NCBI RefSeq assembly: GCF_902833045.1
Contig: NZ_CADFDU010000015.1
Span: 110,884-174,883 of the forward strand
Length of the DNA: 64,000 nt
Source: Burkholderia sp. BCC0322
GTDB taxonomy: Bacteria > Pseudomonadota > Gammaproteobacteria > Burkholderiales > Burkholderiaceae
Direction of reading: 5' to 3'
Position 1 is the first letter of the stretch, and each line of letters starts with the position of its first letter. Both the position numbers and the translations under genes were made by a program. The notes under the pieces are model-generated. The model saw only the letters and a program-made list of their open reading frames with translations. It ran no database searches and was not told the origin of the DNA. This document shows, one piece after another, positions 18,374 through 19,021 of the stretch.

Positions 18374-18853
18374 ATGCTGGATCGTGAAGGCTTTCGCCCG
18401 AACGTCGGCATCATCCTCTTGAACGCGCGCAACGAGGTGTTTTGGGGCAAGCGGCTCCGCGAGCATTCCTGGCAGTTTCCTCAAGGTGGGATCAAGTACG
18501 GCGAGACCCCCATGCAGGCGATGTACCGGGAACTGCACGAGGAAACGGGCCTGCATCCGGAACACGTCAAGATAATCGGCCGCACTCGCGACTGGTTGCG
18601 TTATGAGGTGCCTGACAAGTTCATTAAACGCGAAGTACGCGGTCATTACCGCGGCCAGAAGCAGATCTGGTTCCTGCTGCGGATGGTTGGACGCGATTGC
18701 GACATTTGCTTGCGCGCGACCGACCACCCGGAGTTCGATGCGTGGCGCTGGAACGAGTACTGGGTACCGCTCGATGCGGTGATCGAGTTCAAGCGGGATG
18801 TCTATCAGTTGGCGCTGACGGAACTGTCGCGCTTCCTGCGCCGCCCGGCGTAG
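18374..18853 (+). CDS. rppH: RNA pyrophosphohydrolase, probably truncated by an in-frame TAG
   Basis: Nudix hydrolase that removes pyrophosphate from the 5' end of mRNA and so starts decay. 159 residues to the TAG. The Nudix box GGIKYGETPMQAMYREL...EETGL (residues about 38-60) is complete, so catalysis may survive. The same frame continues after TAG for 55 sense codons (18854-19018) to TGA at 19019-19021. That tail has the organism's codon bias and ends before a terminator. Remembered Burkholderia RppH proteins are about 215 residues long with a similar tail, so TAG at 18851 looks like a nonsense change of CAG. A TATAAT element lies at 18335-18340. Confidence 0.9.
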   Translation: MLDREGFRPNVGIILLNARNEVFWGKRLREHSWQFPQGGIKYGETPMQAMYRELHEETGLHPEHVKIIGRTRDWLRYEVPDKFIKREVRGHYRGQKQIWFLLRMVGRDCDICLRATDHPEFDAWRWNEYWVPLDAVIEFKRDVYQLALTELSRFLRRPA

Positions 18854-19021
18854 CGAGCCGAGAAGCCGCGCGGGCCGCGTCTGTCGCGCTATCCGCGCGT
18901 CATTGGCGCGCAGGCCCAGCAGACGCTGACGATTGTCGATACATCGGTAGTCTGTTCGGAGATCGAAGTGGAAGCGGGCACGCTCGACGAGATGCCGCCC
19001 CACGTGATCGTCGGCAAATGA
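18854..19021 (+). pseudogene. rppH: Detached C-terminal tail of rppH (same frame as rppH, after TAG)
   Basis: 55 codons in the rppH frame, ending TGA at 19019. Translation includes LSRYPRVIGAQAQQTLTIVD and DEMPPHVIVGK. GC-rich third positions and the absence of rare codons suggest recent loss. There is no start codon with a ribosome site of its own. It would be expressed only if the TAG is read through, or if the TAG is a sequencing error. Confidence 0.65.

What the first reader, a model, noticed from the sequence alone, without database searches (positions are those of the whole stretch)
18374..19021. rppH split by an in-frame TAG; a 55-codon tail remains open and coding-like
After TAG at 18851-18853 the same frame continues to TGA at 19019. 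The tail uses the organism's preferred codons and ends in a meaningful peptide (LTIVD ... DEMPPHVIVGK). A strong terminator follows 20 bases later, matching the distal stop and not the TAG. Remembered Burkholderia RppH proteins are about 215 residues long, which equals the sum of both parts. The Nudix core is before the TAG, so activity may remain while the tail's role is lost. Options: a real nonsense change (CAG to TAG), suppression of the TAG, or a sequencing error.
Basis: partly seen in the sequence, partly recalled or inferred. Interest (0 to 1): 0.75.

Follow-up and report, generated by a model that had tools for sequence, protein, structure and literature searches.

The report
rppH truncated by private stop codon
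In this Burkholderia strain the gene for an RNA-decay enzyme has an early stop codon that removes a fast-evolving tail but leaves the catalytic part whole; it is an ordinary strain-level mutation that probably has little effect on the enzyme's chemistry.

Summary
An in-frame TAG at 18851-18853 ends rppH after 159 residues. The frame then stays open for 55 codons to TGA at 19019-19021, and a strong terminator-like stem begins at 19041. Openness alone means little in this GC-rich DNA: 22 of 47 other called ORFs have 55 or more open codons after their stop. Comparison decides it. In 65 of 65 held genomes of the genus RppH is 210-217 residues long with a sense codon at the site. The tail evolves as protein (pN/pS 0.44 in frame, 1.13 and 1.34 out of frame). 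So the TAG is private to this sequence among those compared: most likely a recent nonsense allele, less likely a sequencing error. The lost piece is weakly constrained (mean dN/dS 0.52, against 0.019 for the core). The RppH loci read from elsewhere in the class end at 154-185 residues (28 of 28), and activity of E. coli RppH cut after residue 160 was reported unaffected (PMC7144940, passages). The likeliest outcome is an active, tail-less enzyme. Readthrough is not excluded but has no positive support.

The parts
18374..18853 (+). rppH as it stands: 159-residue RNA pyrophosphohydrolase, whole Nudix domain, ending at TAG
   Evidence: NCBIfam NF001935 346.8 bits (cut-off 259), model positions 1-158 of 183; Pfam NUDIX PF00293 77.4 bits; solved RppH chains match residues 1-152
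18851..18853 (+). private in-frame TAG
   Evidence: sense codon in 65 of 65 genus genomes
18854..19021 (+). stranded former C-terminal tail of RppH, 55 codons and TGA
   Evidence: conserved in 37 of 37 same-genus genomes; pN/pS 0.44 in frame against 1.13 and 1.34 out of frame
19041..19064 (+). intrinsic-terminator-like stem-loop followed by T run
   Evidence: 9 pairs, 8 of them GC, then TTTTTTT

Best explanation
A recent nonsense substitution in one Burkholderia strain (or a shallow lineage of its species) ends rppH at codon 160. Translation stops after 159 residues, just past the conserved Nudix core; the former tail becomes part of the untranslated 3' end of the same mRNA, which would still end at the terminator after 19064. 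Shown: the stop, its absence in the relatives compared, the tail's protein-level conservation, and that the core alone scores as an RppH. Inferred: the substitution is real and not a read error; the short protein is made, folds and still removes phosphates from RNA 5' ends to start decay; what is lost is whatever the basic RYPR-containing tail adds (localisation, partner binding or RNA affinity), at low cost.
For: 65 of 65 genus genomes intact, 210-217 residues. Tail under protein-level selection: mean dN/dS 0.52 over 2080 pairs, against 0.019 for the first 159 codons. Core alone passes a curated RppH cut-off. The core is 100% identical over all 159 residues in 43 of 65 genus genomes. The 28 RppH loci read from the class outside the order end at 154-185 residues (28 of 28, the best-scoring ones). 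E. coli truncations after residue 160 'did not affect enzymatic activity' (PMC7144940, passages). Among ORFs comparable with G001 (47 of 48) and G036 (47 of 49) at over 80% identity, none is split by a frameshift and rppH is the only called gene with a stop deep inside. No tail codon of the window is absent from all 65 relatives, so no decay is visible yet.
Against: The window's own assembly and reads are not held, so a single wrong base cannot be excluded. No second strain of the same species was identified (nearest genome shares 47% of 31-letter words), so whether the stop is fixed in a lineage is unknown. Absence of private tail codons is weak evidence of youth: 28 of 65 intact relatives also have none. 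Activity of the short form is inferred from E. coli.
Confidence: 0.82

Rival explanations
1. Sequencing or consensus error: the strain really has a sense codon and a full-length RppH.
For: The stop is private to this sequence (0 of 65 relatives); the tail shows no decay; own assembly and reads not available.
Against: No frameshift and no other deep stop in a called gene among the ORFs compared with two relatives, so the error rate of this sequence looks low.
Confidence: 0.12
2. The TAG is partly read through or suppressed, so both a short and a long RppH are made.
For: The tail is intact and without private codons, as it would be if still translated.
Against: No relative has a stop there (0 of 65), so there is no conserved programmed event; the one tRNA gene in the window has a proline anticodon; the rest of the genome could not be searched for a suppressor tRNA. 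A young nonsense allele predicts the same intact tail.
Confidence: 0.03
3. The 159-residue form is the normal one and the downstream frame is chance.
For: Long open runs after stops are common in this DNA (22 of 47 other ORFs); the RppH loci read from other orders of the class are about that short (28 of 28).
Against: Tail present in 37 of 37 and full-length RppH in 65 of 65 genus genomes, with protein-level selection in this frame only.
Confidence: 0.01

Closest known systems
RppH (NudH/YgdP) RNA pyrophosphohydrolase, NCBIfam NF001935, Burkholderia form of 210-217 residues
   Same: Residues 1-159 are the same protein (100% identity over all 159 residues in 43 of 65 genus genomes); Nudix domain whole.
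   Different: Ends at residue 159; the 55-residue tail with RYPR (62 of 65 relatives) and CSE[IV]E (65 of 65) is cut off.
Escherichia coli RppH, 176 residues, and its forms cut after residue 160
   Same: Same fold by sequence match to residue 152; similar end point just after the Nudix core; activity of the cut forms reported unaffected (PMC7144940, passages).
   Different: E. coli's own tail (16 residues removed in those forms) is short and its sequence differs from the Burkholderia tail.
Strain-private nonsense alleles of accessory C-terminal tails (general knowledge, no call)
   Same: A single stop in one strain, intact gene in the relatives compared, core domain spared.
   Different: Nothing notable.

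Membership tests
RppH RNA pyrophosphohydrolase | Score over the curated family cut-off | tested here: met
   NF001935: 346.8 bits against 259 for the 159-residue product alone
RppH RNA pyrophosphohydrolase | Metal ligands of the Nudix site (E. coli Q37, E53, E57, E120) | tested here: met
   Q37, E53, E57 and E120 are invariant in the 45-row alignment of relatives, and the window core is 100% identical to its first row, L005; ligands from a passage of PMC7144940
RppH RNA pyrophosphohydrolase | Phosphate removal from RNA 5' ends | not testable with these tools
   needs an assay
Burkholderia full-length RppH | C-terminal tail of about 55 residues | tested here: not met
   the tail lies behind a stop
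Stop-codon readthrough gene | Stop conserved with downstream coding selection in relatives | tested here: not met
   0 of 65 relatives have a stop at the site
Stop-codon readthrough gene | Peptides from the downstream part | not testable with these tools
   needs proteomics

The most novel reading that the evidence does not exclude
The stop is real and leaky or suppressed in this strain, so that a small share of RppH keeps the tail, and the truncation is an adaptive change that alters RNA decay or RppH placement in the cell without killing the enzyme.
Probability: 0.04. Interest if true: 0.5.

Novelty: new member of a known kind. Interest (0 to 1): 0.15.

Why it matters
It is a natural test of what the fast-evolving C-terminal tail of RppH is for: a strain that lost only the tail. 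Across Burkholderiales the tail differs strongly between genera while the core hardly changes, and no paper on its role appeared in the listings seen (15, 12 and 1 papers listed). Beyond that it is one ordinary strain-level nonsense allele.

Tried and rejected
Chance open frame: rejected for the genus by conservation, although openness itself is no evidence. One search counted rppH among its own 47 ORFs, which rounds the GC values, ORFs and gives 22 of the 47 others.

Poor assembly: two relatives (G001, G036) compared ORF by ORF at over 80% identity; no frameshift splits. Of the ORFs without a hit, one of G001 lies beyond the window's edge and one of G036 near its end; a third (G036, 732 residues) matches window 996-3185 in one piece at 77%, below the filter, and was not examined for stops. 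The rough ORF choice misses genes: the G001 set did not flag rppH itself, although G036's did. Two other stops were judged not to be gene damage: about 12448 (minus strand), upstream of an in-frame ATG from which the ORF runs on (amidase label recalled), and 49923, in a frame antisense to two called ORFs.

Structure prediction of an intact relative's RppH (L005) from 45 relatives gave a poor model (mean pLDDT 47, pTM 0.36), so whether the tail is disordered is inconclusive; no fold search was run. The first dN/dS run took only 16 plus-strand loci of 215 residues, one of them (L013) badly aligned; with all 65 genus genomes replaced it. Papers: listings; passages of PMC7144940 and PMC8466066. 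No paper on a nonsense allele of Burkholderia rppH was seen in the listings, in that library only.

Full report
What is there. The + strand from 18374 encodes a 159-residue protein ending at TAG 18851-18853. The next 55 codons in the same frame are open to TGA 19019-19021. A 9-pair GC-rich stem with a T run lies at 19041-19064. The 159-residue product scores 346.8 bits against the curated RppH family NF001935 (cut-off 259), over model positions 1-158 of 183, and matches solved RppH structures over residues 1-152. The 55-residue piece alone matches no Pfam or NCBIfam family at E 1 or better.

Is the open tail more than chance? Not by openness: of the 47 ORFs other than rppH that a rough GC rule calls in the window, 22 have a same-frame open run of 55 codons or more after their own stop (one search gave 22 of 47 with rppH included). 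By conservation, yes. Searched alone, the tail peptide is found in 37 of 37 same-genus genomes and in 0 of 24 genomes from other families of the order, with no stop inside. The core is found in 65 of 65 genus genomes. I read all 65 (30 loci, 35 fetched): each RppH is 210-217 residues long, none stops at this codon, 62 of 65 tails hold RYPR and 65 of 65 hold CSE[IV]E.

How the tail evolves. Over 2080 pairs of genus genomes the ratio of mean dN to mean dS is 0.019 for the first 159 codons and 0.521 for the tail (0.422 in the 1291 tail pairs with dS between 0 and 0.4). In the 39 genomes that align to the window's tail without gaps, pN/pS is 0.44 in frame and 1.13 and 1.34 in the two shifted frames, and differences pile up at third codon positions (3514, 2689, 5613). 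Pairs are not independent, but the contrast between frames is clear: the tail is translated protein in relatives, under weak selection. The window's tail is identical in protein to that of G036 (L111) and has no codon unseen in the 65, which fits a recent stop; 28 of the 65 intact relatives also have none, so this is weak.

Is the sequence trustworthy? The window's own assembly is not held. Against the matching regions of G001 (95-96% identical) and G036 (94-95%), 47 of 48 and 47 of 49 called ORFs were found at over 80% identity; none was split by a frameshift. The stops found were rppH itself (seen with the G036 set; the G001 set did not flag it), one upstream of an in-frame start of an amidase-like gene (label recalled), and one in a frame antisense to two called ORFs. 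Of the ORFs not found, one of G001 lies past the window's edge, one of G036 near its end, and one of G036 matches at 77%, under the filter. So a generally error-ridden sequence is unlikely; a single wrong base remains possible.

What it does. E. coli RppH acts on RNA 5' ends and so triggers decay; its forms cut after residue 160 'did not affect enzymatic activity' (PMC7144940, start of the abstract, passages). In the class, the 28 loci outside the order among the 30 best-scoring (of 109 genomes with a match, 114 searched) end at 154-185 residues, counted from the residue aligned to the window's first; the other matches were not read. P. aeruginosa RppH is reported to substitute for the E. coli one in cells (PMC8466066, passages). 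I therefore expect the 159-residue protein to be active (inferred). The role of the Burkholderia tail is unknown; its basic RYPR stretch suggests RNA or partner contact (guess). A structure prediction meant to see whether the tail is disordered was too poor to use.

Verdict. Readthrough has no positive support. Ordinary.

Noticed in passing
window 40548-40625: A 78-base stretch with a GGCCCCCTCGGGGGC palindrome that is absent at the same place in G001 and G036; it resembles a dispersed repeat, with 8 partial matches in G036, 1 in G017 and 0 in G001.
   Followed up: partly
window 5676-6332, minus strand: A 218-residue lysine- and alanine-rich repeat protein (histone H1-like by recall) coded by dense tandem repeats of 15 to 78 bases, which align to relatives in several registers; copy numbers were not compared.
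   Followed up: no
RppH tails in L001-L080: The RppH C-terminal tail is replaced almost wholesale between genera of Burkholderiales (21 to 96 residues after residue 159) beside a nearly frozen core, often keeping a short RY(P/L)R-like stretch (the stretch was judged by eye).
   Followed up: partly
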